Part shown: positions 4,674 to 41,660 of the stretch, in pieces
Position numbering within the stretch: position 1 is the first letter of the stretch
Layout of the letters: each line of letters starts with the position of its first letter
DNA from: an uncultured Lachnospiraceae bacterium
GTDB lineage: Bacteria; Bacillota; Clostridia; Lachnospirales; Lachnospiraceae
Assembly (NCBI GenBank): GCA_947624025.1
Contig: CANQIJ010000002.1
Coordinates: forward strand, 1 to 42,150
Direction: 5' to 3'
Length of the DNA: 42,150 bases
The notes under the pieces: generated by a model
Seen by the model: the letters and a program-made list of their open reading frames with translations, nothing else
Told to the model about the DNA's origin: nothing
Databases searched by the model: none
Program-made: the position numbers and the translations under genes

Positions 4674-6500
4674 TCATTCCACCGTAACGGACTTCGCCAG
4701 ATTTCTCGGCTTATCCACATCGCAGCCCTTGCCTACGGCTACATAGTATCCGAACAGCTGCAGCGGTATGATCGCCAGCGAATTGGCAAAATACGGATTC
4801 GTTTCGGGAATGTAGATCACATAATCCGCCGCCTTCTCGATCGCCTTGTTTTCCTCGCAGGTAACGGCCAGCACAAACGCGCCCCGCGCCTTGACCTCCA
4901 CCATATTGCTGATGGTCTTGGCATAGAGCTCCGGCTGCGTGGACACCGCCGCCACGAGCGTTCCTTCCTCGATCAGTGAGATCGTGCCGTGCTTTAATTC
5001 GCCCGCCGCATACGCCTCGGAATGGATATAGGAGATCTCCTTTAATTTGAGAGAGCCTTCTAAGGAGATCGCATAGTCGATGCCCCTTCCTATGAAAAAC
5101 ACATCCTTGGCTCCCACATACCGGTTGGCGAATTTCTGGATCTTCAGCTTATTGTTAAGCAGCATCTCGATCTGATCCGGCAGGCATTTCAGATCGCCGA
5201 GCATGGCCGAAAACGCCTCCGGATCAATCTTCCCGCGCACCTTCCCGATCTTCATGGCAAGAAGATACAGGGCGATCAGCTGTGCGCTGTAGGCTTTGGT
5301 CGTCGCGACGGCGATCTCCGGGCCCGCCCAGGTATACATGACGTTATCCGCTTCTCTCGCAATGGAGCTTCCCACTACATTGACGATACCCAGCACCTTA
5401 AACCCGCGCGCCTTCGACTCCCTGAGCGCCGCGAGCGTATCCGCCGTCTCCCCGGACTGACTGATCACCACCACCATGGAGCCTTCTTCCAGGATCGGAT
5501 CGCGGTATCGGAATTCGGAGGCGAGATCCACCTCCACGGGAATACGCGCAAGACCCTCGATGACATATTTCCCGGTCACCCCCGCATGGTACGCGGAGCC
5601 GCAGGCCACGATATGGATCTTCTTAAGGGCGGCCAGCTCTTCATCCGTCATATGCAGCTCTTCAATGACGATGTCATCGTCCTTGATCCTTGGCATCAGC
5701 GTATCCGTCACGGTCTTGGGCTGTTCGTACATCTCCTTCAGCATAAAATGCTCGTAGCCCGCCTTCTCCGCAGCGTCCGTATCCCATTCGATCGTAACGG
5801 GATCCTTACGGAGCTCTTCCTCATCCACCGTATAGAAATGCATGTGATCCGCCCGCAGGCGCACCACTTCCTGATTGTCCACATAATAGACTTTTCTCGT
5901 ATATTTCAGGATCGCCGGCACATCGGATGCGATAAAGCACCCTTCATCGCTCTGCCCTACGATCAGCGGCGAGTCTTTTCTGGTCGCAAAGATCTGATCC
6001 GGACAGTCCGCGAAGAGGATACCCAGGGCGTAAGAGCCTTCCACGCGGTGGAGCACCTTGGTGACCGCCTCCAGCGGATTCCCCTTGTAATAATAATCCA
6101 GCAGATGCGCCAGCACCTCCGTATCCGTGTCGGATACAAACCGATAGCCCTTATCGGCAAGCATCTGGCGAAGCTGCAGATAATTCTCGATGATACCGTT
6201 ATGTACGACCGTGATCGTCTCATCCGCATTAAAATGAGGATGGGCGTTGGTATCGTTTGGAACGCCGTGAGTCGCCCAGCGGGTATGTCCGATACCGCAG
6301 AAGCCGGGCATCGTCTCGCCTCCGCGCGTGAGATTCTCCAGGACCTTAAGCCTCCCGACGGATTTGGTGATATTGATCTTCTCCCCGTCATAGATCGCCA
6401 TGCCTGCCGAGTCATATCCCCGGTACTCCAGCTTACTGAGCCCGTCGAGAATAATGGGAGCCGCCTGCTTCTTCCCTATATAACCTACAATTCCACACAT
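4674..6500 (-). CDS. glmS: Glutamine--fructose-6-phosphate aminotransferase (isomerizing)
   Basis: MCGIVGYIG N-terminal nucleophile Cys; two SIS domains; terminal DKPRNLAKSVTVE. Confidence 0.98.
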   Translation of the reverse strand: MCGIVGYIGKKQAAPIILDGLSKLEYRGYDSAGMAIYDGEKINITKSVGRLKVLENLTRGGETMPGFCGIGHTRWATHGVPNDTNAHPHFNADETITVVHNGIIENYLQLRQMLADKGYRFVSDTDTEVLAHLLDYYYKGNPLEAVTKVLHRVEGSYALGILFADCPDQIFATRKDSPLIVGQSDEGCFIASDVPAILKYTRKVYYVDNQEVVRLRADHMHFYTVDEEELRKDPVTIEWDTDAAEKAGYEHFMLKEMYEQPKTVTDTLMPRIKDDDIVIEELHMTDEELAALKKIHIVACGSAYHAGVTGKYVIEGLARIPVEVDLASEFRYRDPILEEGSMVVVISQSGETADTLAALRESKARGFKVLGIVNVVGSSIAREADNVMYTWAGPEIAVATTKAYSAQLIALYLLAMKIGKVRGKIDPEAFSAMLGDLKCLPDQIEMLLNNKLKIQKFANRYVGAKDVFFIGRGIDYAISLEGSLKLKEISYIHSEAYAAGELKHGTISLIEEGTLVAAVSTQPELYAKTISNMVEVKARGAFVLAVTCEENKAIEKAADYVIYIPETNPYFANSLAIIPLQLFGYYVAVGKGCDVDKPRNLAKSVTVE

Positions 6501-6532
6501 ACTTTCTTCCTCCCGGCATCAGCCTGCGTCTT

Positions 6533-7459
6533 TTATTTCCAGTAATCTTTGTTGGAAGACATGGCGACGACCATTCTTCCCGGGAACATGCGGTAATGTT
6601 TCCCGAATGTATAGCCTATGTATTTGAACGCGCTCTGAAGGAGCACATAAGGGATCCGGCTCCTCGCATGGGAATTCCACAGGTGGCGCACCGTCTGCTT
6701 TACCAGGCGCATTCCTTCGGACTCAGAGGGATATGCCTGAAATACCTCGGGATGCTGCGCCTGGGATACCCCCAGGTCGAAATTCCTGTGAAACTGCTCT
6801 GCGCAGCTGTAATCATGCGAATGGTACACCTTCGCGTCCGCGGCATAGGCGATGCCGTAACCCTTTTCTATCGCTTTGGCGGCATAGAGCATATCCTCGT
6901 TAAATATTGTATGTTTGACAAAACCGCCCAATACATCAAATATCTTCCTGTTATAAGCCGCGCATACATTGGAGAAGAAAAAAGTCTTAATGCCGAGCTT
7001 CTCCAGATCCGCCGCGGTTTTGACCGCCGACTGATCGGGATAATTAAAGCCGCGCGTATATTTCTCGGCCTCGCTGCTCTCTTCCCCGGCAAGCTGTCTT
7101 GCATAAGATGCCGCCACGTTTTCCGCTTCGAGCGGCTTTAACAGCTCCTTCAGAAGATCGTCGTCCGCCGGAACGGCGTCCTGCGTCATCATGACAAAAT
7201 AATCCGCATCCGAACACTGTACGCCCTTATTGCGTGTTTTTCCGTGGTCAAATTCGCGTTTTGACAGATGTTTTACTACGATATTATGATAATCATTCCT
7301 GTAAGAAGTGCCATAAAACAGGCGGTCAAAATACTTTTGTTCCGTGTTCATGACGATAATGCGGTTTACCGGAACGCTCTGGCGCTCCAGCCGCTCGATC
7401 ATGGTCAGGAATTTCTGATCCGGCTTGTACGCGGGGATTATAATGTCCACCTTTTTCAC
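6533..7459 (-). CDS. GT2 glycosyltransferase (rhamnosyltransferase-like)
   Basis: VDIIIPAYKPD...; TQDAVPADDDLL; GT2 fold signature. Confidence 0.85.
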   Translation of the reverse strand: MKKVDIIIPAYKPDQKFLTMIERLERQSVPVNRIIVMNTEQKYFDRLFYGTSYRNDYHNIVVKHLSKREFDHGKTRNKGVQCSDADYFVMMTQDAVPADDDLLKELLKPLEAENVAASYARQLAGEESSEAEKYTRGFNYPDQSAVKTAADLEKLGIKTFFFSNVCAAYNRKIFDVLGGFVKHTIFNEDMLYAAKAIEKGYGIAYAADAKVYHSHDYSCAEQFHRNFDLGVSQAQHPEVFQAYPSESEGMRLVKQTVRHLWNSHARSRIPYVLLQSAFKYIGYTFGKHYRMFPGRMVVAMSSNKDYWK

Positions 7460-7480
7460 GTTCTGTCCCTCCCCGAAAGA

Positions 7481-7507
7481 AAAGGAGCCAGCAAAACCGG
7501 CTCCTTT
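7481..7507 (-). terminator. Rho-independent terminator-like hairpin after the LCP gene
   Basis: AAAGGAGCC-n9-GGCTCCTTT; on the minus strand followed by a T-rich stretch. Confidence 0.6.
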
Positions 7508-7517
7508 GCTCTGCTTA

Positions 7518-8738
7518 TTATTTTAGATATCCGTTTGTATCGGAATAGATCTGTTCACTGCATGTCTTGACAGTCGCCGACGGCTCATAGTCATAGTCGT
7601 TGAACAGATACTGATGCAGCCATTTGACATTTTCCTCCAGAGAGACCGGAACAACGCAGGATCCCTTGGAACCGATCGTACCCGTCGCGCGGTTTTCTTC
7701 TCTCGGGAAGCCCGCCGTATCGGAAATATAATATTTGCCCACGTCGCCGAGCATCTCTATGATCTCCGACAGATCTAACGATGTGTAAGTCTCTTCAAAT
7801 ACGGAATTGGCTATCTCCGTCAGGCTGGCCACGGAAGCCTTCTTCGCCTGATCCGCCACCGCCTGTATCACCTCACGCTGTCTCTCCGCCCGCCTGAAGT
7901 CGTCGCCGCCGCCATACCGCACACGGCAGTAGCCCGTTGCCTGAAGGCCGTTTAACAGCTGATAGCCTGCGGACGATACCGGTGTATAATCACGGTGCAG
8001 GTTTTCCGCCATACAGATCTGATAGTTGTTCAGATGATTCTTCTCGTTGTCATCCACATCGATATATACGCCGCCGAGCGCATCGATCGTATCCGTCAGT
8101 CCCGCAAAACCGACCGTGACGAAATCAGTGATGTTCATATCCAGATTCATGTTCAGCATATTGATCGCCATTTCGGGACCGCCCTTGGCGTATGCCGCAT
8201 TACATTTATTATAGGAATCGTTGCTCAGGTTCAGGTAAGTATCACGGTATACCGATACCAGCTTGCACTCGCCCGTATCCTGATTGATGGACGCGATCAT
8301 GATCGAGTCGCTCCGCGTGTTCTTCGTCAGTGCGCCGGTAGTGGAATCCACGCCGAACAGGGCGATATTGCGGTAGCCCTTCATCGTTGCTTCCTCCTCC
8401 TGCTGGACAGTGTCGTTGATGATGATATCGTCTTCCTTGATCTCCATCTTGCCGCCCTTGGTTGCCGTCAGGACGCTGTACAGAACCACGACCGCAATGA
8501 CGAGAACGATGATCTCAACGATAAAGATAATGATCCTTCTGCGCTGCTTCCTGGCTTTCTTCTTCCTGCCGGAGCCCTTCTTTCCGCTGCCCGAGCCTTT
8601 GCCGCCCGAGCTCTTTCCCCCTGAGCTTCTGCCTGACTGGCTGCTTTTGCCGGAGGGCTTCCTGCCGCTTTTGCTGCCGGACGAAGATTTTTTTCTCGGG
8701 CGTTCTTCTTCGTATTCATCTTCGATATACTTTGCCAT
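7518..8738 (-). CDS. LytR-CpsA-Psr (LCP) family cell wall polymer ligase with Ser/Gly/Lys-rich cytoplasmic tail
   Basis: ALFGVDST...RSDSIMIASIN...LVSVYRDTYL...CRVRYGGGDDFRRAERQREVI; one TM after a basic tail. Confidence 0.93.
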   Translation of the reverse strand: MAKYIEDEYEEERPRKKSSSGSKSGRKPSGKSSQSGRSSGGKSSGGKGSGSGKKGSGRKKKARKQRRRIIIFIVEIIVLVIAVVVLYSVLTATKGGKMEIKEDDIIINDTVQQEEEATMKGYRNIALFGVDSTTGALTKNTRSDSIMIASINQDTGECKLVSVYRDTYLNLSNDSYNKCNAAYAKGGPEMAINMLNMNLDMNITDFVTVGFAGLTDTIDALGGVYIDVDDNEKNHLNNYQICMAENLHRDYTPVSSAGYQLLNGLQATGYCRVRYGGGDDFRRAERQREVIQAVADQAKKASVASLTEIANSVFEETYTSLDLSEIIEMLGDVGKYYISDTAGFPREENRATGTIGSKGSCVVPVSLEENVKWLHQYLFNDYDYEPSATVKTCSEQIYSDTNGYLK

Positions 8739-24474: not shown

Positions 24475-25827
24475 CTACTCTTCCCCGCCGGTCGTGGGAA
24501 CGTTGCCGCTGTCGCCGTCAATCACTCCCGAATATGCCGCCGCGCCCCTGGCATGGTTGATGGATGTATCGATATTCATGTAACAAAGATCCAGATCAAC
24601 CCTGGTCTCTATACCGTCCACAGTACCCTTGGACGTATACTGCCACATATCGTAATATCCGTCATAGGTGGGCGCATCGGCGTATTCCGCCAGCCACACT
24701 CTATATTGTGACAGTTGTGTCATATCTAATCTTCCGTTCAGCCAGTTTTTAGAAGCATAGATACACGCCTCATATCCCGATGCGGTGACCGTCTCCAGAA
24801 ACGCTTTGTGGCACTTCATCCGCTCCTCTGCGTCCAGCCGGTCCGCGCGTCCGTTTCCTCCCGCGCTCTCACTGTCCAGGACCACCGGATAGTCCACATC
24901 ATAATCCTCGATCAGACGGATCACCATGCTGGCTTCCTCGATGGCCTCCACCTCGGTTACCGCCTGTGTAAAGAAGTATACGCCCACAGGGATGCCCGCC
25001 TCGATCGCACCCCTGATATTGGTCTCATACATGGGGTCTAAAACCAGCGCACCGCTGGAAGCGCCCCGGTATCCGCAGCGGATGATGGCAAATTCCACTC
25101 CCGCATCTTTTACCTTCTCCCAGTCTATCGTCTCATTCCACCGGGATACGTCGATCCCCAGCCGTCCGCTGCCGGAATCAAGCTCCAGCTCCGTATTTTC
25201 GCTTCCGTCGGCCGTCTCCTCCGCACTGTGGACAAATTTATCCTCCTTCTCCACATCGACGTCATTCTCCGTCAGGATCATATACTCGATATCATCCAGG
25301 ACGCGATACTCCACTGACTGCTTTACCTGTATCGTCGTGATCGTGTTCGGCACGATGTACCCCTGCGCCTCCTCCAGGGAAACGCTGTATTCTCCCGCGC
25401 GCAGACCGTCAAGATAGATCACGCCGTCCTCGTCCGAGTCGGTGTATTCGCCCAGCTCCTGTATTCTGACCGTAAAAGGTACGCCCGACACCAGTCTCCC
25501 CGCGCTGTCCACTACCATGATGCGCAGATCTTTTGCGACGGAGCTCATAACGAGCGAGACTCGTCTGCCGGAATAGCTCTCAATACTCTTAAACTTAACC
25601 TCGGGATCAAAAAAAGTTTCATCCGCCAAAAAGCCCGACAGATCGTTTCCCAGCTGCGTTTCCTCCCCGGTCTCCTGTACGGATGCCGTTTGTTCCGCCT
25701 CCGCCTCCGGAGACAGCCCCAGCTTATGCCTGATGACGTCAGGGTTCATGGCTGCGATCGCGCCGATCAGAACCACAAACATAGCCGTCATTGCGATCAG
25801 CATTCTTCGCATTCTCTTAGAGTCCAT
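24475..25827 (-). CDS. Membrane-anchored GH25 muramidase with CnaB/prealbumin-like domain
   Basis: [33 protein letters not shown]...[10 protein letters not shown]-terminal [23 protein letters not shown]-like domain. Confidence 0.9.
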
Positions 25828-26686
25828 TGGCAACCTCAACCATATACTGGCCGTATGCCGTCTTCATCAGTGGCTTAGCCAGCTCCAACAGTTGTTCCTT
25901 CGTGATAAAGCCTCTCTTGTAGGCGATCTCCTCGATGCAGGAGATATATAACCCCTGCCGCTTCTGGAACGCCGCGACGAAATCCGCCGCATCCAGCAGG
26001 GAATCGTGATTGCCGGTATCCAGCCACGCGAAGCCCCGGCCGAGCGTTTCCACATACAGCTCGCCTCTTCTCAGATATTCGTTGTTAATGCTGGTGATCT
26101 CGATCTCACCCCTTGCCGAGGGTTTTACGCCGGCGGCGATATCCACCACATCATTGTCATAGAAATAGAGTCCCGGCACCGCGTAATTGCTCTTAGGATG
26201 CTCCGGCTTTTCCTCGATCGAGACCGCCCTGCCGTTCTCGTCAAATTCCACCACGCCGTACTCTCTCGGATCCCTGACATAATAGCCGAAGATCGTCGCT
26301 CCCGACTGTCTTCCCGCCACCTCTCTAAGCACCCTGGAAAAGCTCTGTCCGTAGAAGATGTTGTCGCCCAGCACGAGCGCCACATTGTCCGAGCCGATAA
26401 AATCGGCGCCTATGATAAATGCGTCGGCCAGCCCGCGCGGAGACTCCTGCACAGCGTACTCCATCTTAAGCCCCAGCTGTTCGCCCGTTCCAAACAGTTC
26501 CTTAAAGACAGGCAGGTCTCTCGGGGTGGAAATGATCAGGATATCCCGTATTCCCGCCAGCATAAGAATAGACAGCGGATAATAGATCATCGGTTTATCG
26601 TATATCGGCATGATCTGCTTCGATATGGCTTTTGTAAGCGGATACAGGCGTGTGCCCGAGCCTCCCGCAAGTATGATACCTTTCAT
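25817..26686 (-). CDS. rfbA: Glucose-1-phosphate thymidylyltransferase
   Basis: [39 protein letters not shown]. Confidence 0.97.
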
Positions 26687-27968: not shown

Positions 27969-30698
27969 TTAATATGCCATATAGCTTATGTTCATATCTA
28001 CGTTGCCGTTTATCCCGCTGATCCTGCCCTTGGAGGAATACTGCCACATATCGTGCCTGGTCGCCGTATAAGTCGGCGCGCTTGCATACTGCGCAAGCCA
28101 GATCTTATAGCCGGTCAGGCTGGCGGTATTGATCTTCTCGGTAAACCATGTCTTATTCGCATAGATGCCTGCCGAATACCCGGAATCCTGTACGGTCGCG
28201 CAGAATGCCTTGCACACCGCCGTTCTCATCTCCCTGCTCACACCGTCGCCCCGGCCGCCGCTCGACTCCACATCCAAAAAGATCGGATAATCAAGACCGT
28301 ACCCGCTGACAAGTCCGATCGCCATGGAAGCCTCCAGTACCGCCTCCACTTCGTTGACAGCCTGGCTGAAGAAATAGACTCCGACCTTCAGGCCGGCCGC
28401 CTTTGCTCCCTTGATATTGCTTCTGAATTTCGGATCCTCAATCAGCGCGCCGCTGGAGGAGCCTCTGTAACCGCACCGGATGATCACATAAGACACGCCG
28501 GAATTTTTGACGGCATTCCAATCGATATTGCCGTTCCACTTGGATACGTCGATTCCCATCGTTCCCGATCCCTGGGAAAGCCTGCCGTCGCTTCCGAAAT
28601 TATATCTGGCGCCCTGGATGACCTGCTCGCCCGTCACGTAATTGCCGTTTTTATCATAATAATACACATAACCGTCTATCGTCTGCCACCCGGTATAGGA
28701 ATACACCGCTTTCTGCAGGTAGAATTTCATGCCGTCCGCGTAGTAATCGGCATAGGTCGCCTCCACATAGCCTCCGTCCTTCCTGATATAGACCTGATTG
28801 CCGTTCTTATCCTTGAGCTTGGCCTGGCTGTCGACCTGCTTTTCCGTCTTCTCGACCGTAACCTTACAGGTGGCGGATGCGTCGCCGCACTTAACCGTGA
28901 TCGTGGCCGTCCCTGCGGCGATTCCCTTAAGCTCTGCCGTGGCCGCGTTCTGGCTCACGATCTGAACAATCTTCTCATCGCTGCTCGACCAAGCGACCGT
29001 ACCGCCCTCGGGAGTCGTCTTTGCCACAGCCTGTCCCGTGCCGCCGACCGACAGCGTAGCGGGGCAGCTCGAAACAGCTACCGAATATTGGTCGGGCGTG
29101 TTTGTTTCGCCCTCCCCCTGAGCCTTACATTTTGAACTGTCCTCTTTGCAGACCGGGCAGTTCTGATCAACCCGGTCCGATGTACAGCGGCTCGTGCAGT
29201 TACATATCGGGGAATCGGTATCCTTCGGCTGCTCGGGCTCGGTGATCTCCCTGCCGACGCAGTTCTCCGGATGCTCCCTGCAGACCGGACAGGTGCCGAT
29301 CCTGGAGGAATCCGTACAATGCGGGCCTTCCGGATCGCATGTACAGGTCTGCTGTTCCTCCGGCGATGTCGCCTCACGCCCCATACAATTATCGAGACTG
29401 GCTCCGCATGCCGCACAGTCGGGATTGGCTTCGCCTACACATTTATTTTCACAGATACAGTCGTCGGGGCCCCATCCCTCCTCCGTCTCGGAGGTCGTGA
29501 CGATCTGTGCCCCTCCGGTTTCTACGATCTTCATAAAGCCTCCGGCCCTGCCGCTCAGCGACGGATCCGGAATATTGTCTTTGCTGATCTCCTCGTAGCT
29601 CTCGTCCGAATTGATGAGCGTCTTGGTGGATTCCACCCACTCAACGGTATCCTGGAGCGCCGATTCCACCGCGGTATCCTGTTTAGCGGTATCCTCAACG
29701 GCCGCATTGACCTCCGCCTCGGTCTTTACCTCATCGGCGACCTCCACCTTCTTATAGGCGATCGTATCCGTAACCTTGACGCTCACAGCCGAGGAAGGCA
29801 GCAGATAATTCTCAAATCCGCTCTCCTTAAAAGGTTTGGCCGTCACCTGATAGGTGCCCGCATCCAGTCCCGTCTGATAGATGATGCCGTCCTTATCCTC
29901 ATCCTTCAGATCGAAGGTCTTCTTGCCGTTTGACACCTCCACGGTAAACGGCACACTGCCGATCAGCTTTCCCGTCGCCTTATTGACAAATTTGATCTTA
30001 AGGTCGGACTGTACCGAGGTCAGATTGACGGTGACCTCGATCCCCTCCTTCTTTTCCTCTGTCTGTTCCGTGACCTCTTCCGGTTCTTCCAGATCGATCA
30101 TAGCCGCCAGCCGCGCCGATTCGGATACCGCCACAAGCCCGCTCTCGCCGATCACGGAAACGCCCTCGATCTGTTCGCCGACCGACGCAAAGGTCTCGAT
30201 CTGCTTCTCCACGTTCCTGGCGTTCACATACAGCGAACCGGAGACAATCACGCCCGCGATCACGACAATGCCCAGCATGGCCACGATCATGTCCAGAACC
30301 GTCATTTCCTCCAGGAACCGCCTGAAGCGCACAAACACCCCGTCGTCTTCATCATAATCGTATTCGTCGTCGTCATCATCCTCGTCGTCGTATTCGTCGT
30401 CGTCGAAGTCCTCATCATCCTCTTCCCCGTCGAAGTCTTCGTCTTCCTCGAAATCCTCTTCTTCGAGCTCCTCATCGTCCTCTTCTTCATCGTAACGCGA
30501 CGACGCCTTCCGTCCATCCGTACGTCCCCGCCCGTTCCGAGCAGATTCTATCATCTCATCGTCCAGGCATAAGAACTCAAGCGTATCGTCAGTCACAGTG
30601 TCTTCGTCTTCCTCGTCAAAGCCTTCCTCACCGAGAAATTCCTCCAGAAGCTCTTCCCCGGCCAAATGTTTCTTACTGCTGTTCTTATTGTCCTTCAT
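27969..30698 (-). CDS. Large membrane-anchored GH25 muramidase: acidic cytoplasmic tail, TM, CnaB-like, Cys-rich repeats, Big2-like, wall-binding-like repeat, GH25
   Basis: GIDVSKWNGNIDWNAVKNSG...YPIFLDVES; Big2-like LSVGGTGQAVAKTTPEGGTVAWSSSDEKIVQ; WQTIDGYVYYYDKNGNYVTGEQ repeat. Start moved to MKDNKNSS. Confidence 0.9.
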   Translation of the reverse strand: MKDNKNSSKKHLAGEELLEEFLGEEGFDEEDEDTVTDDTLEFLCLDDEMIESARNGRGRTDGRKASSRYDEEEDDEELEEEDFEEDEDFDGEEDDEDFDDDEYDDEDDDDDEYDYDEDDGVFVRFRRFLEEMTVLDMIVAMLGIVVIAGVIVSGSLYVNARNVEKQIETFASVGEQIEGVSVIGESGLVAVSESARLAAMIDLEEPEEVTEQTEEKKEGIEVTVNLTSVQSDLKIKFVNKATGKLIGSVPFTVEVSNGKKTFDLKDEDKDGIIYQTGLDAGTYQVTAKPFKESGFENYLLPSSAVSVKVTDTIAYKKVEVADEVKTEAEVNAAVEDTAKQDTAVESALQDTVEWVESTKTLINSDESYEEISKDNIPDPSLSGRAGGFMKIVETGGAQIVTTSETEEGWGPDDCICENKCVGEANPDCAACGASLDNCMGREATSPEEQQTCTCDPEGPHCTDSSRIGTCPVCREHPENCVGREITEPEQPKDTDSPICNCTSRCTSDRVDQNCPVCKEDSSKCKAQGEGETNTPDQYSVAVSSCPATLSVGGTGQAVAKTTPEGGTVAWSSSDEKIVQIVSQNAATAELKGIAAGTATITVKCGDASATCKVTVEKTEKQVDSQAKLKDKNGNQVYIRKDGGYVEATYADYYADGMKFYLQKAVYSYTGWQTIDGYVYYYDKNGNYVTGEQVIQGARYNFGSDGRLSQGSGTMGIDVSKWNGNIDWNAVKNSGVSYVIIRCGYRGSSSGALIEDPKFRSNIKGAKAAGLKVGVYFFSQAVNEVEAVLEASMAIGLVSGYGLDYPIFLDVESSGGRGDGVSREMRTAVCKAFCATVQDSGYSAGIYANKTWFTEKINTASLTGYKIWLAQYASAPTYTATRHDMWQYSSKGRISGINGNVDMNISYMAY
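29122..29460 (-). repeat. Three tandem Cys-rich repeats within the large GH25 protein
   Basis: CICENKCVGEANPDCAACGASLDNC / CTCDPEGPHCTDSSRIGTCPVCREHPENC / CNCTSRCTSDRVDQNCPVCKEDSSKC. Confidence 0.8.
30340..30494 (-). repeat. Low-complexity acidic (Asp/Glu) coding tract
   Basis: Dense tcg/tcc/tca triplets on + strand; protein YDEEEDDEELEEEDFEEDEDFDGEEDDEDFDDDEYDDEDDDDDEYDYDEDDG. Confidence 0.9.
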
Positions 30699-30781
30699 CT
30701 TTCCTCCGCAGCGAATCCGCCCCACAGCAGAACAGTCTGCCGGCGATGCGGTCCTCTTGTCCTTATGTAAACCCTTATTTT

Positions 30782-30798
30782 TTAACAATTTTGTAACA
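30782..30798 (-). promoter_or_regulatory. WalR (YycF)-consensus box upstream of GH25 gene
   Basis: Minus strand TGTTAC-AAAAT-TGTTAA fits TGTWAH-N5-TGTWAH. Confidence 0.5.
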
Positions 30799-31670: not shown

Positions 31671-32714
31671 ATGAAACACGAACCCACAGGGCAGGAACCC
31701 ATATCCGATGATCGAAACGACGCACCGGAAGACCGTGCGCCCGAGCAGGATACGCCGGGCAGACGCCTGCCCGTTAATATCCATGCGCTCATACTGTGCG
31801 CCATCGTACTGATCGTGGCCTTCTCCGCATACCGGTTATACAGATGGAACAAGGGCGTTCCGTCCGATTACGACCCGGACTATCAGACCACCGACTTTGA
31901 CATCGAGACCATGGACAATATCATTCCGCTGCTGCCGGAAAAGCTTGAGGGGCACGAAGACGATGGCGTAACTACCATCTTATGTCTCGGCGATGATCCT
32001 TTTTCCCTGAACCAGGGCGAAAACGGACTGGCGGAGCAGATTGCCGCCAAGACAAAGGCCACAGTCTATAACGGCTCTTTTACGGGCACAACGATCGCGG
32101 CCGGATATCCGACCTATAACGACTGGTACATGATCGATGCGTTTTCCTTTTCCTATGTGGCGCAGAGCCTGGCCAGCGGTGATTTTGACCAGATGAAGCA
32201 CGCCGCCGCCTTAAGCTACGACGAGTCCTTTCCCCGCACGGCAGAGCTGCTGGAATCGATCGATATGAACAGCGTGGACGTGATATGCATCATGTACGAT
32301 GCCAGCGACTATATCAACCTGCGGCCATGCGACGACCCGAACGCGCCCTACGACATCGTAACCTATACCGGCGCGCTGCGAAGCGGTATCACCGCGATAC
32401 AGGAGGCATACCCGCATATCCGTATCGTTGTCATGTCGCATACGTTCTGCCACTCGATCGGCGAGGACGGCAATTTCCAGAACGGCGACCGCACGGATCT
32501 CGGGAACGGGACCATAAGCCACTATTGGCAGAAGGAGATGGATGCCTGCATGGACTGCGGCGTTTCCTTCATCGACAATTTCTACGGCTCCGTCAACGAA
32601 GACAACTATCTGGACTACATGACGGACTATATCCATTTCAACGACGCCGGCCGGGAGCTGCTCGCCCGCAGATTCGCGGAATGCATTTTCCCCGAGTCTT
32701 CGGATGCGCAATAA
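31671..32714 (+). CDS. Membrane-anchored SGNH-like protein with GDD in place of GDS
   Basis: N-terminal TM; ILCLGDDPFSLNQGENGLAEQIAAKTKATVYNGSF; C-terminal DYIHFNDAGRELLARR (DxxH). Confidence 0.7.
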   Translation: MKHEPTGQEPISDDRNDAPEDRAPEQDTPGRRLPVNIHALILCAIVLIVAFSAYRLYRWNKGVPSDYDPDYQTTDFDIETMDNIIPLLPEKLEGHEDDGVTTILCLGDDPFSLNQGENGLAEQIAAKTKATVYNGSFTGTTIAAGYPTYNDWYMIDAFSFSYVAQSLASGDFDQMKHAAALSYDESFPRTAELLESIDMNSVDVICIMYDASDYINLRPCDDPNAPYDIVTYTGALRSGITAIQEAYPHIRIVVMSHTFCHSIGEDGNFQNGDRTDLGNGTISHYWQKEMDACMDCGVSFIDNFYGSVNEDNYLDYMTDYIHFNDAGRELLARRFAECIFPESSDAQ

Positions 32715-32735
32715 TGACACCCGTGTCAGTATTGC
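32708..32735. terminator. Palindrome spanning both convergent stop codons
   Basis: GCAATA-a-TGACAC-cc-GTGTCA-g-TATTGC; next small hairpin CGTTG-aaaa-CAACG at 32735-32748. Confidence 0.5.
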
Positions 32736-33781
32736 GTTGAAAACAACGTTTCAAAATCAAACCTGTCGATCACGGCGCGCATATGCTCCAGCGCGCCTTT
32801 CATTTCGTCTCCGCTTGTCACCTCACAGGTCCCGTCTGCGAAGCATTCGGTCATATACCGGTTGATATCCCTGTGATAATGGGTGTAGTCCGCATAATTG
32901 TTCAGATCCGTCACGATCTTCTCCTGATCGGCAAAAAAGAATACGCGCACGTTATCATAAGACAGCAGAGTATCGGTAATATACTGATATTCCGCCATTG
33001 TCGCTTCCAGATGGTTCTCCGTCATCACATCGTTCCAATACAGGATGCTGTACGGCGGGAAAAAGATATAAAAAACGGTATCCGGATTCTGTTCGATATA
33101 CGGACAGATGTTGACGCGGAGATTTTTTTCAACGCTTTCAAGGTACGCGTCCGGGGCAGCTTCCGTCTCTGACCTCGCCGGCGGTTCGTAGTTGTGCATG
33201 ACCCACTGGATATTATAATATTCATCGGTCCACCAGCTCTCATAGACCGTGGCAAGATCCGTCTTCTCCGAATCGGCGAGCGGCCGCAGGATATAGTTGA
33301 GCACAACGTCTTTGTTGAAGAGATAGCGCACATCATTGAGAAGATTATCGTCGTAGAGGTACGCCGGAATCGGGTATTTCGTCTCGTCCACGCCGCCGCT
33401 GTAGGTCATCACATCCACGCCGAGGAATACCGAATCCACTTCCCGTCCGCTGTCAAAGATAATCTCCATGATATTAGCCTGATCCTTAGGATAAGCTCCG
33501 CTGTAACACAATTTGACCGTATGAAGCCCCAGTAATTCCTCAAACCAGCGGGTGTCAAAGTTCACCGTCATGGAAGAGCCCAGGATCACACTGTCGTATT
33601 CCAGATTTTTGGCCATACCCGGATTCTGGGAAAGCTGATTGTCCACAAGATACGGAAAATGCGCAAGCGGCGCATGGTATTGAAAAAAAGGATCCACCCA
33701 GATCACCAATGCCGCCGTGAGGACCAGGAATACCAATAGGAATACCGCCAGGGATACCGTCCACTTTTTGAATCTGTTCAT
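32726..33781 (-). CDS. DltD/AlgJ-like SGNH-fold protein associated with MBOAT
   Basis: N-terminal TM; SVILGSSMTVNFD block I-like; C-terminal DYTHYHRDINRYM; adjacent to MBOAT. Confidence 0.65.
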   Translation of the reverse strand: MNRFKKWTVSLAVFLLVFLVLTAALVIWVDPFFQYHAPLAHFPYLVDNQLSQNPGMAKNLEYDSVILGSSMTVNFDTRWFEELLGLHTVKLCYSGAYPKDQANIMEIIFDSGREVDSVFLGVDVMTYSGGVDETKYPIPAYLYDDNLLNDVRYLFNKDVVLNYILRPLADSEKTDLATVYESWWTDEYYNIQWVMHNYEPPARSETEAAPDAYLESVEKNLRVNICPYIEQNPDTVFYIFFPPYSILYWNDVMTENHLEATMAEYQYITDTLLSYDNVRVFFFADQEKIVTDLNNYADYTHYHRDINRYMTECFADGTCEVTSGDEMKGALEHMRAVIDRFDFETLFSTQY

Positions 33782-33822: not shown

Positions 33823-35319
33823 CTAAAAATTAAAATACAAGAAAGTACTCACCTGTGAAAAGGAAAGCACACACCACACAGCCAGAACCGCAAGCGCAAA
33901 CGCAGACCCTGCTCTGTACCGCAGGCTTTCCGCTCTCTGCGCCGCATTTCTGCCGATCATTGCCAGATAAATGCCCGCCGCGAGCATAACGCACAGGGGA
34001 AGATAGCCGGCATACGACAGCCGGTCCAGGCCAAGCACCTTGACCGCATACCACAACTCATCCGGTCTCACCGCTTCCGCAAGCTCTGCGGCGATCCTCT
34101 GTACCGGACCCTTCACTGCGGTATACAGCAGTTGGTTTGCCTGAGAAATATCTGCGGCGCGGAAATAGACCCACGCCACACTTACATAGGCAAACAGAAG
34201 CAGCGATGCGGCCGTTCCCACCGTCTTGCCCGGACCGCGCCCGGACTGTCTCTGCAGGAATCCCGGCTTCAGGCTTCTCTGCCAGAATCTCGTCGCCGCA
34301 TACAGCAGGCCGTGGAGCAGTCCCCACACCAGATAATTCCACCCCGCGCCGTGCCACAGCCCGCTGAGCAGGAAGACGATCATCAGGTTCAGGTACATCC
34401 TCGCCGCGCCGGCGCGGCTGCCGCCTAACGGGATATAGACGTACTTCGTAAAAAAACGGTTCAGGGTGATGTGCCATCTTTTCCAAAAATCAATGATATT
34501 GACCGCTTTGTACGGCGAATCGAAATTGACCGGGATCTCAATGCCGAGCATCCTGCCGATCCCCCGCGCCATATCGCAGTATCCGCTGAAATCAAAATAA
34601 AGCTGCAGCGAGTAGAGAACCATGACAAGCACTGCGTCAAACCGTCCGAGCGCCGCAATATTGGCATAGCCGTAATCGACCCCCGCGCCGAACGTATCCG
34701 CGAGCAGAACCTTCTTGGACAGTCCCAAAATAAACAACCCGGCGCCCTGCGCGATCCGCTCCCACCTGACAGGTCTGTGTCCGATCTGCGCAAACTGCGG
34801 GAGCATCTCGCTGTGATTGACGATCGGGCCCGCGATCAGCTGCGGAAAGAAAGAGACAAAAAGCGTATAATCGACAAGCGGGCAGTCCCTCACCTCGCCG
34901 CGGTAAGTATCCGCCACAAAGGAGATCTGCTGAAACGTGAAAAAGCTGATGCCAAGGGGCAGCAGAATGTTCTTAAGCGCCACGGAAGTGCCGAATACGG
35001 CATTGACCGTCCCGGCAAAGAAATCATAATATTTAAAATAGAACAACACGCCAAGATCGACCGCCACCGCAAGTACCATGACCGCCTTATGCGGCCTTCG
35101 GCACAAGATCCTGTGAAACAGATAATTCACGCCGATGCTGCATATCATGATGAGCAGGTAGGCAGGATTAAAATATCCGTAGAACCAGAAGGACATAAAG
35201 ATCAGGAAAAGCTTGTCCTGCACCGCCCTGCCCTGCCCTCTGTGATTCGACGGAAGGTAGAAGCCCAGCAGACATATGGGTAAAAAAACAAACACAAAAA
35301 TATAGGAATTAAATAACAT
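33823..35319 (-). CDS. MBOAT family O-acyltransferase (AlgI/PatA/DltB-like)
   Basis: Multi-TM; FDFSGYCDMARGIGRMLGIEIPVNFDSPY; LSGLWHGAGWNYLVWGLLHG catalytic His region. Confidence 0.95.
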   Translation of the reverse strand: MLFNSYIFVFVFLPICLLGFYLPSNHRGQGRAVQDKLFLIFMSFWFYGYFNPAYLLIMICSIGVNYLFHRILCRRPHKAVMVLAVAVDLGVLFYFKYYDFFAGTVNAVFGTSVALKNILLPLGISFFTFQQISFVADTYRGEVRDCPLVDYTLFVSFFPQLIAGPIVNHSEMLPQFAQIGHRPVRWERIAQGAGLFILGLSKKVLLADTFGAGVDYGYANIAALGRFDAVLVMVLYSLQLYFDFSGYCDMARGIGRMLGIEIPVNFDSPYKAVNIIDFWKRWHITLNRFFTKYVYIPLGGSRAGAARMYLNLMIVFLLSGLWHGAGWNYLVWGLLHGLLYAATRFWQRSLKPGFLQRQSGRGPGKTVGTAASLLLFAYVSVAWVYFRAADISQANQLLYTAVKGPVQRIAAELAEAVRPDELWYAVKVLGLDRLSYAGYLPLCVMLAAGIYLAMIGRNAAQRAESLRYRAGSAFALAVLAVWCVLSFSQVSTFLYFNF

Positions 35320-35345: not shown

Positions 35346-36125
35346 TTATTTCACAGCTGCGATATCCGTCTCCGTATCCTTATAGATCAGATATTCCCCT
35401 ACCCGGTCATACAGGGCATACCCGTATCCGGTCAGCGGCTCCTGCAGCTTCCTGTCTTCCTTAAGGACGATATACGCACAGGGATACTGCCGGGCAAGCT
35501 CCACGAAGGACCGTGTCTTTATCACTTCATCCTCCTCCATCGCACTGTACATATCATTCCAGTAGCCCCACCTGTCGATCAGCATCTCCCTGCCGTACGG
35601 AAGCTCTATGTTGGTGCTGTACTGACGCACATAATAGATCAGATCCGCCGGGACAAGAATCGTGATGCGCCCCTCGCCAGGTTCGATCAGATCCACGATA
35701 TCGACCGCATCCTGCGGAAGATGATAGGCGTTCTCGGCCTTCGCAATATTTTCGCTGTCGTAGACATAATCACCGCAGACAATGACGGCGGCGCACATTA
35801 TGACCAGCCCGATCCGCCTGTGCCTCCCGCACAGCTTGATCATGCCATAAGCGCTCACCAGACTCATCTGCAGCAGCCACAACAATCTGTAGTATGTTTC
35901 CGAGTCATCCAGTATCCCCACAAACGCCTTGCGGAACAGCGGGCAGAAAAACAAAAGCAGAATAACCGTCGGCGCATAGACCAAAACCGCCTTCAGCCGC
36001 TTATCCTTCTCCGTCAGCCACAGGTACAGCAGCATAAAAAGATAGATACCCGCAAGATAACCGTTCTGATCAAATCCCATATAATTCTTGAAAATGACAA
36101 CGCTCTCCAAAAAGATACCCCACAT
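35346..36125 (-). CDS. Membrane protein, C-terminal half of a split GT-C/DUF6077-like protein
   Basis: Several TMs plus a soluble tail; same frame as the upstream ORF, separated by TAG and three codons. Confidence 0.6.
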   Translation of the reverse strand: MWGIFLESVVIFKNYMGFDQNGYLAGIYLFMLLYLWLTEKDKRLKAVLVYAPTVILLLFFCPLFRKAFVGILDDSETYYRLLWLLQMSLVSAYGMIKLCGRHRRIGLVIMCAAVIVCGDYVYDSENIAKAENAYHLPQDAVDIVDLIEPGEGRITILVPADLIYYVRQYSTNIELPYGREMLIDRWGYWNDMYSAMEEDEVIKTRSFVELARQYPCAYIVLKEDRKLQEPLTGYGYALYDRVGEYLIYKDTETDIAAVK

Positions 36126-36134
36126 AGAATGCTC

Positions 36135-37253
36135 CTATCTCAAAAGATATCCGTATGCCAGATACACATAGACCGCCATATAGATAACGTTCGGAATACA
36201 CGCAGCCGCCATCTTAACGATCACCTTCCCGTCCCTCTCTGTGACAGCAAGGCACAGCGCAGTCACCGCCATCAGGATACACACGAGGAATACGGCGATC
36301 GAGCTGCACAGCCCCGCTGCCGTATTGACGCAGGTCAGCAAGATCCACAGCCCGGTATCCTTACGGCTTTCCTTCGCCCCGTCGTATATACGCAGAATAA
36401 CCCAGAACAGAGCCGGGATCACGAGGCTGCCCGCCACGGCTTTGCCCTGCCACGTCCGGGTAAGGAAAAACGTCTCGTTCGTGTAGATCGACACGTTTCC
36501 GAATATTTGAAAGAAGGCCATAACGCACATGAAGACCGGAAGATTTTCCGAATGAAAAACGCTGCCGTCAGCTTCACCGCGCCTGCAAAACAGAATACGC
36601 CCAATCTCATAATATACAAGATAACTTAAAGGGATCAGTACAAGAGGCATAACCACATGCGACACGATCGTTGCATGTATATCGCTTTTTACCGCTACAT
36701 ACGCGATCCACATCGGAAACACCGCCAGCGCATGCCTGATATCCGGGTCCGTCGGCCTGCCCGTGTACGGCAGAATACGGTACATCACATCCGCCTGCTG
36801 CGCGATCAGCGATTCCACCACATAGTAGGCGTCATCCCCGTCAAAAGACGCATGGGATACCGCCATATACAACTGGACGCCGAGCAAAATAAAAAACAGA
36901 GCCCACTCAATCCGCTGCGCAGGTGGAAGCGGCTTAAACAGCGCACCGGGGCCCCGCACACTGCGGCTTGTCCCCTGCGTCTTATGCATGCGATACGTAA
37001 GCCACAGTCCCGCCGCTGCACACAAGAGACTTACGACCATAAAGCAGATCGAAGCCTTGGTAAAATTATTATATTTGACCCATAACACCGCGGGTATCGC
37101 AATAACCTCAAACAACGACCACATCAGAAAATAACCGGCCAGGAGCACCGTGCCCGGATCTTTTTTGTCTGCGGATATGAAATACGCCGGTATCAGACCG
37201 ATGCAGTACGGTATAACTAACAGCCAGAATAATAAGCTCAGAATATGAAGCAT
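36135..37253 (-). CDS. Multi-TM membrane protein, N-terminal part (GT-C/DUF6077-like)
   Basis: About 11 TM segments; HASFDGDDAYYV acidic motif in a loop after TM4. Confidence 0.65.
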   Translation of the reverse strand: MLHILSLLFWLLVIPYCIGLIPAYFISADKKDPGTVLLAGYFLMWSLFEVIAIPAVLWVKYNNFTKASICFMVVSLLCAAAGLWLTYRMHKTQGTSRSVRGPGALFKPLPPAQRIEWALFFILLGVQLYMAVSHASFDGDDAYYVVESLIAQQADVMYRILPYTGRPTDPDIRHALAVFPMWIAYVAVKSDIHATIVSHVVMPLVLIPLSYLVYYEIGRILFCRRGEADGSVFHSENLPVFMCVMAFFQIFGNVSIYTNETFFLTRTWQGKAVAGSLVIPALFWVILRIYDGAKESRKDTGLWILLTCVNTAAGLCSSIAVFLVCILMAVTALCLAVTERDGKVIVKMAAACIPNVIYMAVYVYLAYGYLLR

Positions 37254-37286: not shown

Positions 37287-37315
37287 ATTGTATCATACTG
37301 TACATTTTCCCGCAA
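37287..37315 (-). promoter_or_regulatory. Candidate promoter for the split membrane protein/MBOAT transcript
   Basis: Minus strand TTGCGG-N17-TACAAT with TGA extension of the -10. Confidence 0.55.
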
Positions 37316-37370: not shown

Positions 37371-38930
37371 ATGAAAAAGGTTTATGTTATCGGCGCCGGA
37401 CCCGCGGGTCTGACCGCAGCGTACGAACTGTTAAAGCAGAGCAAAGATTATGAAGTAGTCGTTCTGGAAGAAAGCGAAGCGATGGGCGGTATCTCCAAAA
37501 CCGTCAACTACAAGGGCAACCGCATGGATATGGGCGGGCACCGCTTTTTTTCCAAGGTGCCGGAAGTAAATAAGTGGTGGAACGATATGCTCCCGCTTCA
37601 GGGGAGCCCCGCCCGTGACGATATCAAATTATCCAGGGACATCCCCCTTGCCAAAAACGGTCCCGATCCCGAAAAAGAGGATCGTGTCATGCTGACAAGG
37701 AACCGTGTTTCCCGCATTTATTACAATCAGAAATTCTTTGATTATCCCATCAGCTTAAAATGGGAAACCTTTGCGAATCTCGGGCTTGCCACGGATATTG
37801 CGGCTGGCTTCAGTTATCTGGCGTCCGTTATACACAAACGCAAAGAAAATTCACTGGAGGATTTTTATATCAACCGCTTTGGCAAAAAGCTGTACTCCAT
37901 ATTTTTTGAACGCTACACCGAAAATCTGTGGGGACGCCATCCCAGAGAGATCGACCCCAGCTGGGGCGCCCAGCGCGCCAAAGGGCTTTCGGTATTTGCC
38001 ATCATTAAGGACATGTTCGGCAAGATACTGCCCGGCAGGAAAAACCGGCATGTTGAGACTTCCCTCATCGAATCCTTCAGCTATCCGAAGCTCGGACCCG
38101 GTCAGCTGTGGGATGTGACTGCCGAAGAGATCCGGAAGCTGGGAGGCACGATACAGACAAACTGTAAGGTAATTTCCCTCACCAAAAACGCAGACAACCA
38201 TATTGTCTCACTGACTTACGAAACGAACGGACAGCCTGTCACGGCAGAAGGAGATATTTTCATATCCTCCATGCCGCTTAAGGATCTGGTCGGCGGTATG
38301 AACGATGTACCCGCCAAAGAAGCTGCAATCGCGGCGGGTCTTCCCTACCGCGATTACAGAACGCTGGGCGTGCTCATCCGCAAACTGAATCTGCAGAATA
38401 AGACGAAAATAAAAACTATCGGCAACATCGTTCCGGACAACTGGATCTACGTTCACGACCGCACGGTACAGGTAGGGCGTTTCCAGATATACAACAACTG
38501 GTCACCCTATATGGTAGTGGATCTGGAGCATACGGTCTGGATAGGACTGGAATATTTCTGCAGCGAGGGAGATAAGCTCTGGAATATGTCTGATGAAGAG
38601 TTCTCTGCTTTCGGGATCTCAGAGATGATCAAGATGGGGCTGATCGACAGTAAAGAAGACGTCATTGATACCCATTCGGAATCCGTAAAGAAAGCGTATC
38701 CCGCATACTTTGATACCTACAGCGAGATCGATACGCTGATCGACTACCTGAAGGGAATCGACAACCTCTACTGCGTAGGACGTAACGGCCAGCACCGCTA
38801 CAACAATATCGACCACTCTATGATGACTTCCTTTGAGACAGTCAGGAATATCGTAAACGGTATTGACAACAAGGATAATATCTGGAGCGTGAACACAGAG
38901 CAGGAGTATCACGAATCCAAATCATCGTGA
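37371..38930 (+). CDS. NAD(P)/FAD-dependent oxidoreductase (amine oxidase / UDP-galactopyranose mutase-like)
   Basis: [18 protein letters not shown]...[17 protein letters not shown]...[11 protein letters not shown]. Confidence 0.9.
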
Positions 38931-39991
38931 TGACCCGACCCGGCCGCACGTCTTGCGGCCACCGCGCGCCCGGCAATTACCGCAAGTCCGGCGATCAGCA
39001 GAAAATAGAAGCTGATCCCTCTTGTCACGTAAAGCGATGGCATCAGATATCCGCCCGTAAAGATCGTTCCGAATATATTTCTATACATGAGTTCCGTGAT
39101 TCCCTGTGCCCCAGGCACAGGGAGCATATCTACAGCAATATAGACCGAAGCCTGAAGAAACGCTATTGTAAGCGCATCCGACCCTTTAAGGGCAAATCCC
39201 CGATAGATGATCCAGGTCATAATAAAAACACTGCATCTTTGCAGAAATGTAAACAGGCATACATAAAACACTTTCTGCTTATTATCGATCAGGAATCTTA
39301 CCGCCGACCTGTACCCTTCCACAAAATGCCCTATCTTCTCCGTTCTTTTTACCGAAGCTTTGAAAACTCCGATTTTAACTAACTGCCGCTCTGCCTTCAG
39401 CGCTACTTTCTTTATCACATCCGGCATCATCATGACCGCCAGGATCGCCAGCACCAGCGCCAGATTCAAGCCCAGTCCCAGAAGGTATAACGGGAAAAAT
39501 CCCCGAAGATAAGCTTTAAGTGGTTTATGCCAGAACAGCAGCATTGCGATCCCGATCAGCGCAAGCACAAGCTTATAGACCAGCGCTACCGTCATCAAAA
39601 CCACTGAGGATTCCGACAGGCTGTTATGGTCTTTTCGCATATAATACAGCTGCATCGGCTGACCGCCGGTAGCCGACGGCGTGATACCTGAATAGAAAAA
39701 ACCGATAAATGAATAGGAGATGCATCTGAGTATACTGCCCCTCCCATGCATGGAATGAAGCAAATACCAGATCATGATGCCCTCGGCGCTGACAAAAAAC
39801 AACGCCACGAGCATTGCAAGGCATAAAGCCCACGGTGACAGTTCGCGCAGCGCGTTGATGATCTGCTCCGCATCCTGCCCATGAAAAACGGTATAAAACG
39901 ACAGACACATGACCAGCAGGAAAAAAATCCCTTCCGCGATCCTTTTCCTGCTTATTTTCATTCTGCCCCTAACATTATGTCCGGTATCCAT
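38909..39991 (-). CDS. Flippase-like / LPG synthase TM-region (UPF0104/AglD-like) membrane protein
   Basis: [31 protein letters not shown]...; multi-[16 protein letters not shown]. Confidence 0.85.
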
Positions 39992-39998
39992 TTACACA

Positions 39999-40526
39999 TT
40001 ATCCTTCCACCAGTTTTGCCAGACGGCCCTCAAATACAGTCCTCTTATACGGATAATAATAGAAATCCTTCGGGGTTACAAGAGAAAAATGCTTAGACGA
40101 TATATCAATATGATTCTCGGCAAGCAGTCGCGCGATATAAGAAGAACATGTATAATGATCTCTCTGGTAAAACGGTATGCCGCACATGATAAAGAAAAGT
40201 CCGGCTACTGCGTAATGACTGCTCTTCCGGTATTGATAATCCTGACGCAGACGTCTTCTGATCCTCTCCTTCTGTTCCACGCTGCACTCCAGTTCGCACA
40301 CCCGGTAATCCGCGGTAGGAAAAGCCCGCAGTATTCTATTTTTATCTTCCCTCTCAAACCCTGCGAAGAACGGCAGCCTCGGATTTCTCCTTCCGAAGCT
40401 GTATGCCTCTTCGAGCCGCTCGTCCAGAGAAATCACAACATGTATATATTTCTGTTTCAGAAAGCGGCGTATGATACCGGCAAACAGTCCCGGCGTATCC
40501 ACCATCGCAATATAGATATGTTCCAT
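39999..40526 (-). CDS. Permuted papain-like (NlpC/P60 / YiiX-like) cysteine peptidase/amidase candidate
   Basis: His motif KYIHVVISLDERLEEAYSFG precedes Cys motif YTCSSYIARLL; GGGAGG RBS before MEHIYI. Confidence 0.6.
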   Translation of the reverse strand: MEHIYIAMVDTPGLFAGIIRRFLKQKYIHVVISLDERLEEAYSFGRRNPRLPFFAGFEREDKNRILRAFPTADYRVCELECSVEQKERIRRRLRQDYQYRKSSHYAVAGLFFIMCGIPFYQRDHYTCSSYIARLLAENHIDISSKHFSLVTPKDFYYYPYKRTVFEGRLAKLVEG

Positions 40527-40545
40527 ATCCGCTGCCTCCCACATC

Positions 40546-41601
40546 TTACTGAAACTGATAGATCCTCCGGGCCGCCCGGTAACCGCCTCTTGTAAGCATC
40601 CCGCCCAGTCTGCCGGGCAGATAAGTCAAACCGCTCAATGTGGTATACTTCAAGCGGAAATACAATCTGGCATTTTCCTCTTTTACATTATTCCACAGTT
40701 TTTTTCTCTTTCCGAACGCCTCATCGGAATTGATGAGCAGGAGATGGACCGAAGATATAGCCATCATAATGGAGATATTGCGGCACATATATTCTGCGAG
40801 CTTCGGATACCTCTCCTTCACTTCATTCAAGTCCACCGATCTAAGGACGATCTCTGTCACCTTGATCTGCTGGTCGATTCGGCTCATGAGGATCTTTTCA
40901 TTGACAGACTGATCCGGCCGCCCGATATAGTAATGATACAGATCCGTATCCATATAATAGATATGTCTTACACAGGGCAGTGGCTTGTAAGCAAATATAT
41001 TATCTACATAGAAAGTGTGCTCCGGTAAAACCACATCCGCTTCTTTAAGCAGGGCGGTCCTGAAGACCAGCGCATGCATGATCAGATACTGGGATGCATG
41101 AAATCTGCCGATGTCGTTCCAGTCACACATTACCTCCACCGGAAATACATTGCGGTAATGTACCGCATGGTACGTCCCCTCGTCCAGATGGTCATAGATA
41201 TAGTTGCAGACAAACATGTCAGGGATCTCTCTGACAAGTCCCGACTCCTTCATCGCGCAAAATCTTCTGATCCTGCCGAGCAGCCTTTGATATGCCCCTT
41301 CATCAAGCCAGTCGTCCGAATCGACCACTTTAAAATAAATTCCCTTTGCTGCTTTCAAACCGGCATTGACGCCCGAACCGTGTCCGCCGTTTTCTTTATG
41401 GACCGCCCTGACGATACCCGGATATGCTTTCTCATACCTATCCGCAATTTCTCCCGTTGCGTCCGTGGAACCGTCGTCCACTACGATGATCTCCACATCC
41501 CTGCCACCCACAAGCAGCGAATCTATGCAGCGGCTCATATAATCCTGGGAATTGTAGCAAGGTACAGTAAACGTGATATATTTTGTTTCTCTTTCGTCCA
41601 C
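40546..41601 (-). CDS. GT2 glycosyltransferase
   Basis: YITFTVPCYNSQDYMSRCIDSLLVGGRDVEIIVVDDGSTDATGEIAD; GTG start with GGAGG 8 nt upstream. Confidence 0.92.
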   Translation of the reverse strand: MDERETKYITFTVPCYNSQDYMSRCIDSLLVGGRDVEIIVVDDGSTDATGEIADRYEKAYPGIVRAVHKENGGHGSGVNAGLKAAKGIYFKVVDSDDWLDEGAYQRLLGRIRRFCAMKESGLVREIPDMFVCNYIYDHLDEGTYHAVHYRNVFPVEVMCDWNDIGRFHASQYLIMHALVFRTALLKEADVVLPEHTFYVDNIFAYKPLPCVRHIYYMDTDLYHYYIGRPDQSVNEKILMSRIDQQIKVTEIVLRSVDLNEVKERYPKLAEYMCRNISIMMAISSVHLLLINSDEAFGKRKKLWNNVKEENARLYFRLKYTTLSGLTYLPGRLGGMLTRGGYRAARRIYQFQ

Positions 41602-41660
41602 CCTTTTCACCTCCGGTTTCTATCTATCATAACGGCCAAAACCGTTGAATTTCTTCAATG

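What the first reader, a model, noticed from the sequence alone, without database searches (positions are those of the whole stretch)
35346..37253. Large membrane protein interrupted by a single in-frame amber codon
The ORFs 36135-37253 and 35346-36125 are in the same frame: ...TAT CTT TTG AGA TAG GAG CAT TCT ATG TGG GGT.... Read through, they give one about 635-codon protein with about 15 TMs, an early DGDDAYY loop motif and a soluble C-terminal domain, a GT-C-like plan. A GGAG precedes the second ATG, so restart is possible. Options: recent nonsense mutation, programmed split, or TAG readthrough. The upstream promoter (TTGCGG-N17-TACAAT) looks intact.
Basis: partly seen in the sequence, partly recalled or inferred. 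Interest (0 to 1): 0.6.

Follow-up and report, generated by a model that had tools for sequence, protein, structure and literature searches.

The report
Two-gene split GT-C glycosyltransferase
The stop codon does not break a gene: it is the normal end of the first of two neighbouring genes that, throughout this family of gut bacteria, together encode what looks like one membrane sugar-transferring enzyme (rare relatives encode it as a single gene).

Summary
The two ORFs, the TAG at 36135-36137 and the shared frame are real. The amber-interruption reading is not supported. In 77 of 77 Lachnospiraceae loci that hold both parts, the protein is encoded as two genes cut at the same place. The stop is TAG, TAA or TGA, the gap is 9 nt to 2.2 kb, and 38 of 77 are in another frame; one relative has two intact glycosyltransferase genes between the halves. 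A genome encoding a 94%-identical protein has the same TAG. dN/dS is about 0.17 on both sides, so neither half is decaying. At short gaps the stop is mostly TAG, because TAGGAG also supplies the Shine-Dalgarno of gene 2.

Gene 1 is DUF6077 (PF19554). Gene 2 has no Pfam family. Eight distant homologues are one uninterrupted ORF. Joined, the halves are predicted as one compact body (pTM 0.89) whose best solved-structure matches are all GT-C glycosyltransferases. DxDD is conserved in the expected loop. The operon continues with an MBOAT acyltransferase and an SGNH-like protein.

Best explanation: a GT-C enzyme made as two separately translated subunits that assemble in the membrane and add a lipid-carried sugar to a surface glycan. 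The split is established; assembly and chemistry are inferred.

The parts
36135..37253 (-). Gene 1: DUF6077 (PF19554) membrane protein, 372 aa; N-terminal GT-C half with the D138-G-D140-D141 motif; ends at TAG 36135-36137
   Evidence: Pfam 8.9e-118, whole model covered 3-353/354; motif conserved in at least 95% of 80 rows
35346..36125 (-). Gene 2: partner membrane protein, 259 aa, no Pfam family; last transmembrane helices plus a soluble C-terminal domain
36126..36137 (-). Junction TAG GAGCATTCT: the stop of gene 1 overlaps the Shine-Dalgarno (AGGAG) of gene 2; in the read-through model this region (residues 370-384) is disordered
   Evidence: 19 of 25 short junctions in relatives read TAGGAG
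33823..35319 (-). Next gene: MBOAT (PF03062; DltB-like) acyltransferase, 498 aa
   Evidence: directly 3' of gene 2 in 63 of 77 loci
32726..33781 (-). Next gene: 351 aa SGNH-like protein (GSSM and DYTHYH motifs), probable partner of the MBOAT protein
   Evidence: weak Foldseek matches to SGNH enzymes
37371..38930 (+). Divergent neighbour: FAD/NAD(P) amine-oxidase-type protein (PRK07208 family), 519 aa
   Evidence: found in 59 of 79 loci
37287..37315 (-). Promoter-like TTGCGG-N17-TACAAT upstream of gene 1
   Evidence: reading of the sequence only; not tested for conservation

Best explanation
The locus encodes a GT-C-fold membrane glycosyltransferase made from two genes. Gene 1 (DUF6077) supplies the first transmembrane helices and the catalytic DxDD loop; gene 2 supplies the last helices and the outer soluble domain. 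Ribosomes end at the TAG and start gene 2 nine bases on, using a Shine-Dalgarno that overlaps the stop. The two proteins then assemble in the membrane and probably move a sugar from a polyprenyl-phosphate carrier onto a surface glycan that the downstream MBOAT/SGNH pair acylates. Shown: two conserved separate genes, both under purifying selection, next to or fused to each other, and a joint GT-C-like predicted fold. Inferred: physical assembly, translational coupling, sugar transfer and its substrate.
For: Split in 77/77 loci that hold both halves, with three stop types, variable spacing and frame. 73 of 77 congeners match, and every match spanning both halves carries a stop. Two intact glycosyltransferase genes lie between the halves in L081. 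dN/dS 0.17 (gene 1) and 0.16 (gene 2) against the nearest relative. In wider Lachnospiraceae gene 2 follows gene 1 in 59 split cases, and eight homologues are fused. The window lies inside an all-split clade, 56 rows, SH-aLRT 91. AlphaFold2 on the joined chain: pLDDT 85, pTM 0.89, disorder below 50 only at the join. Top eight PDB fold matches are all GT-C enzymes, best E 6.8e-5. DxDD is conserved in most split and fused members. TAGGAG in 19 of 25 short junctions. MBOAT and SGNH-like genes follow.
Against: No biochemical data; no paper in the held library names DUF6077. The fold match is moderate (TM about 0.4, about 10% identity). The joined chain holds the halves near each other, so the model is weaker proof of assembly than a two-chain model would be. 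Frames are the same more often than one third (39/77, p 0.002), mostly through shared spacings in near relatives, so rare read-through cannot be fully excluded.
Confidence: 0.74

Rival explanations
1. Recent nonsense mutation in a single-gene enzyme (pseudogene in the making), or a sequencing/assembly error at the TAG.
For: The ORFs are in frame with a single stop, and fused homologues exist.
Against: An independent genome (94% protein identity) has the identical junction. No close relative has an open full-length frame. Both halves are under purifying selection. The window sits deep in an all-split clade.
Confidence: 0.01
2. Programmed TAG readthrough makes a joined protein alongside the short one.
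For: Same frame here and in 39 of 77 loci; TAG is the commonest stop at the join.
Against: 38 of 77 are in other frames, TAA and TGA are also used, and gaps run to 2.2 kb with whole genes inside. TAG ends 8 of 28 window genes. No PylS above cut-off. TAG excess at short gaps is explained by the TAGGAG overlap. The join is disordered in the model.
Confidence: 0.03
3. Two separate membrane proteins that work in one pathway but do not form one enzyme; gene 2 might be an acceptor-binding or accessory protein.
For: Always separate here; gene 2 has a soluble outer domain; GT-C helper proteins have been proposed (PMC8035078).
Against: Fused homologues with the same order; joined model confident as one body; fold alignments run over about the whole joined length.
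Confidence: 0.18
4. The pair has the GT-C fold but does something other than sugar transfer.
For: No characterised member; weak sub-threshold hit of gene 2 to exosortase/archaeosortase (E 0.048).
Against: DxDD in the expected outer loop; neighbours are glycan genes; GT-C-only top matches.
Confidence: 0.12

Closest known systems
GT-C fold glycosyltransferases (AglB/STT3, ArnT, AftB) and bacterial GT-C enzymes of multi-component transmembrane glycosylation systems (YfhO, GtlB, GtsC)
   Same: Predicted fold, many transmembrane helices, acidic DxD-type motif in an outer loop, soluble outer domain, glycan gene neighbourhood
   Different: Encoded by two genes; no sequence-level similarity to solved GT-C enzymes; donor and acceptor unknown
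DUF6077 (PF19554)
   Same: Gene 1 is a full-length member
   Different: The Pfam family covers only gene 1; its constant partner (gene 2) has no Pfam family
Alg13/Alg14 and bacterial EpsE/EpsF (split MurG-like enzyme)
   Same: A glycosyltransferase split over two genes, with re-fused forms in some lineages (PMC8993221)
   Different: GT-B fold and cytoplasmic active site (own knowledge); unrelated
MBOAT-SGNH O-acylation pairs (PatA/PatB, DltB/DltD type)
   Same: Downstream gene pair
   Different: Neighbours, not part of the split enzyme; the SGNH assignment is by motifs and a weak fold match

Membership tests
DUF6077 (PF19554) | Score above the curated Pfam cut-off over the whole model | tested here: met
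   393.6 bits against cut-off 27, positions 3-353 of 354
GT-C fold glycosyltransferase | GT-C fold (7 or more transmembrane helices with a catalytic outer loop) | tested here: met
   By prediction only: joined model; top eight PDB matches all GT-C, E 6.8e-5 to 2.3e-2
GT-C fold glycosyltransferase | DxD-type acidic motif in an outer loop | tested here: met
   D138-G-D140-D141 at least 95% conserved; present in most distant members, missing in a few
GT-C fold glycosyltransferase | Sugar transfer from a lipid-phosphate donor | not testable with these tools
   Needs biochemistry
Multi-component transmembrane glycosylation system | Linked polyprenyl-phosphate GT-A enzyme, flippase and GT-C | tested here: inconclusive
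   A GT2 gene (40546-41610) and a flippase-like LPG_synthase_TM gene (38909-39991) lie nearby here and in 15-17 of 79 loci; roles untested, no GtrA-type flippase seen among the genes scanned
Programmed stop-codon readthrough gene | Conserved frame and stop between the two parts | tested here: not met
   38 of 77 out of frame; TAG 45, TAA 20, TGA 12
Split glycosyltransferase (Alg13/14-like behaviour, not membership) | Two genes kept together, fused in some relatives | tested here: met
   59 split and 8 fused in the wider set; at least 3 changes on the tree

The most novel reading that the evidence does not exclude
A GT-C enzyme whose membrane core is cut between transmembrane helices and works as an obligate two-protein complex, with repeated fusion/fission across Lachnospiraceae: a GT-C counterpart of Alg13/Alg14.
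Probability: 0.62. Interest if true: 0.5.

Novelty: new variant of a known kind. Interest (0 to 1): 0.4.

Why it matters
It turns an apparent broken gene into a widespread two-gene enzyme, gives an uncharacterised Pfam family (DUF6077) a likely fold, motif and constant partner, and offers a concrete test of the proposal that some bacterial GT-C enzymes need a second protein (PMC8035078). It also suggests that annotation should treat the pair as one functional unit in gut Lachnospiraceae.

Tried and rejected
Recent nonsense mutation, sequencing error and TAG readthrough were tested and rejected. Sequence search of the joined profile against PDB gave nothing; gene 2 alone gave only chance-level hits. 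The direction of change (fission or fusion first) could not be settled: the tree has no outgroup and many long branches, and the one-clade test of the fused rows did not finish. Literature searches for a described two-polypeptide GT-C core found none, within an open-access library only.

Full report
Observation. The minus strand holds ORF 37253-36135 (372 aa), TAG, nine bases GAGCATTCT, then ORF 36125-35346 (259 aa) in the same frame.

What gene 1 is. It matches Pfam DUF6077 over the whole 354-position model (8.9e-118); the match ends at residue 365, seven residues before the stop. Gene 2 matches no Pfam family. The family is nearly restricted to Lachnospiraceae: 86 of 250 sampled genomes of the window's family (almost all of different genera) are over the cut-off, but only 4 of 399 genomes drawn across the phylum, all in that same family. 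One member was found in another family of the class (L119).

The split is old. 73 of 77 genomes of the genus have a match, and every match spanning both parts carries at least one stop. In 79 relatives from genome contigs, 77 hold gene 2 and all 77 are split at the same protein position. Stops are TAG 45, TAA 20, TGA 12. 39 are in the same frame and 38 are not. Gaps run from 9 nt to 2254 nt. In L081 two intact glycosyltransferase genes (6118-7179, 7223-8326) lie between the halves, and L034 shows the same order up to its contig end. In 63 loci with the MBOAT gene directly behind gene 2, frame offsets are 33/16/14. The excess of same-frame cases (p 0.002 against one third) is concentrated in near relatives that share a 9 nt or 111 nt gap.

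Neither half is decaying. Against the nearest relative (L044, identical junction) dN/dS is 0.17 for gene 1 and 0.16 for gene 2.

Why TAG. At gaps of 13 nt or less the stop is TAG in 22 of 25, and TAGGAG in 19; at longer gaps TAG is 23 of 47 (Fisher p 0.0018, not corrected for kinship). TAGGAG is both a stop and a Shine-Dalgarno, which fits stop-and-restart coupling. TAG ends 8 of 28 window genes and no PylS passes its cut-off, so TAG is an ordinary stop here.

Fused relatives. In the wider set gene 2 follows gene 1 in 59 cases; eight homologues are single ORFs of about 500-650 aa with the same order: L119, L128, L132, L162, L163, L164, L165, L166 (L164 and L166 are weak matches in the gene 2 part). 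L169 showed no detectable gene 2 part. On a quick tree of 87 joined rows, fused and split states need at least three changes, and the window lies in an all-split clade of 56 rows (SH-aLRT 91). The root is unknown, so whether fission or fusion came first is open. Alg13/Alg14 gives a precedent of one split followed by re-fusions (PMC8993221).

Fold. AlphaFold2 on the read-through sequence with 21 paired rows and further single-half rows gave pLDDT 85.3 and pTM 0.89; the only stretch below 50 is residues 370-384, the join. If the halves had no fixed relation, pTM would be expected nearer the larger half's share, about 0.6 (my inference). Foldseek against PDB: the top eight are all GT-C enzymes (AglB 6.8e-5, STT3 2.2e-4, ArnT 2.3e-3, AftB 2.3e-2), with TM about 0.4. 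D138-G-D140-D141 and much of SIYTNETFFLTRTWQGK are nearly invariant. Of seven fused rows examined, four keep DxDD and one GDD; L164 and L166 lack it.

Surroundings. The order gene 1, gene 2, MBOAT, SGNH-like is conserved (MBOAT in 64, SGNH-like in 60 of 79 loci). The SGNH assignment rests on GSSM and DYTHYH motifs and weak fold matches to SGNH hydrolases and OatA (best E 0.012; model pLDDT 74). The window is a surface-glycan cluster: GT2 enzymes, a Wzm/Wzt-type exporter, Rml-type genes, a phosphoglycosyltransferase and an LCP protein. GT-C enzymes with DxD motifs that use lipid-linked sugars are described for such systems, and reviewers speculated that small GT-Cs may need a second protein (PMC8035078).

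Verdict. The stop is a normal gene boundary. The pair is most likely a two-subunit GT-C glycosyltransferase; separate genes are shown, assembly and chemistry are inferred.

Noticed in passing
window 31671-32714 (+) and 1794-2795 (+): Two GDSL/SGNH esterase-type genes, one convergent with the SGNH-like gene: possible de-acylases beside the acylation operon.
   Followed up: no
window 27969-30788 (-) and 24475-25839 (-): GH25 lysozyme-type proteins, one with choline-binding repeats and one with a SpaA domain, inside the glycan cluster.
   Followed up: no
window 39999-40544 (-): 181 aa protein with no Pfam or NCBIfam family, conserved between a GT2 gene and a flippase-like gene in 11 loci.
   Followed up: partly
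L044 and L046 (genome G067): One genome holds two copies of the pair, 94% and 71% identical to the window's, each followed by MBOAT and SGNH-like genes.
   Followed up: partly
L081:6118-8326: Two glycosyltransferase genes inserted exactly between gene 1 and gene 2.
   Followed up: yes
L167, L170, L172, L176, L180, L181: Tandem duplicated gene 1-gene 2 pairs in some genomes.
   Followed up: no
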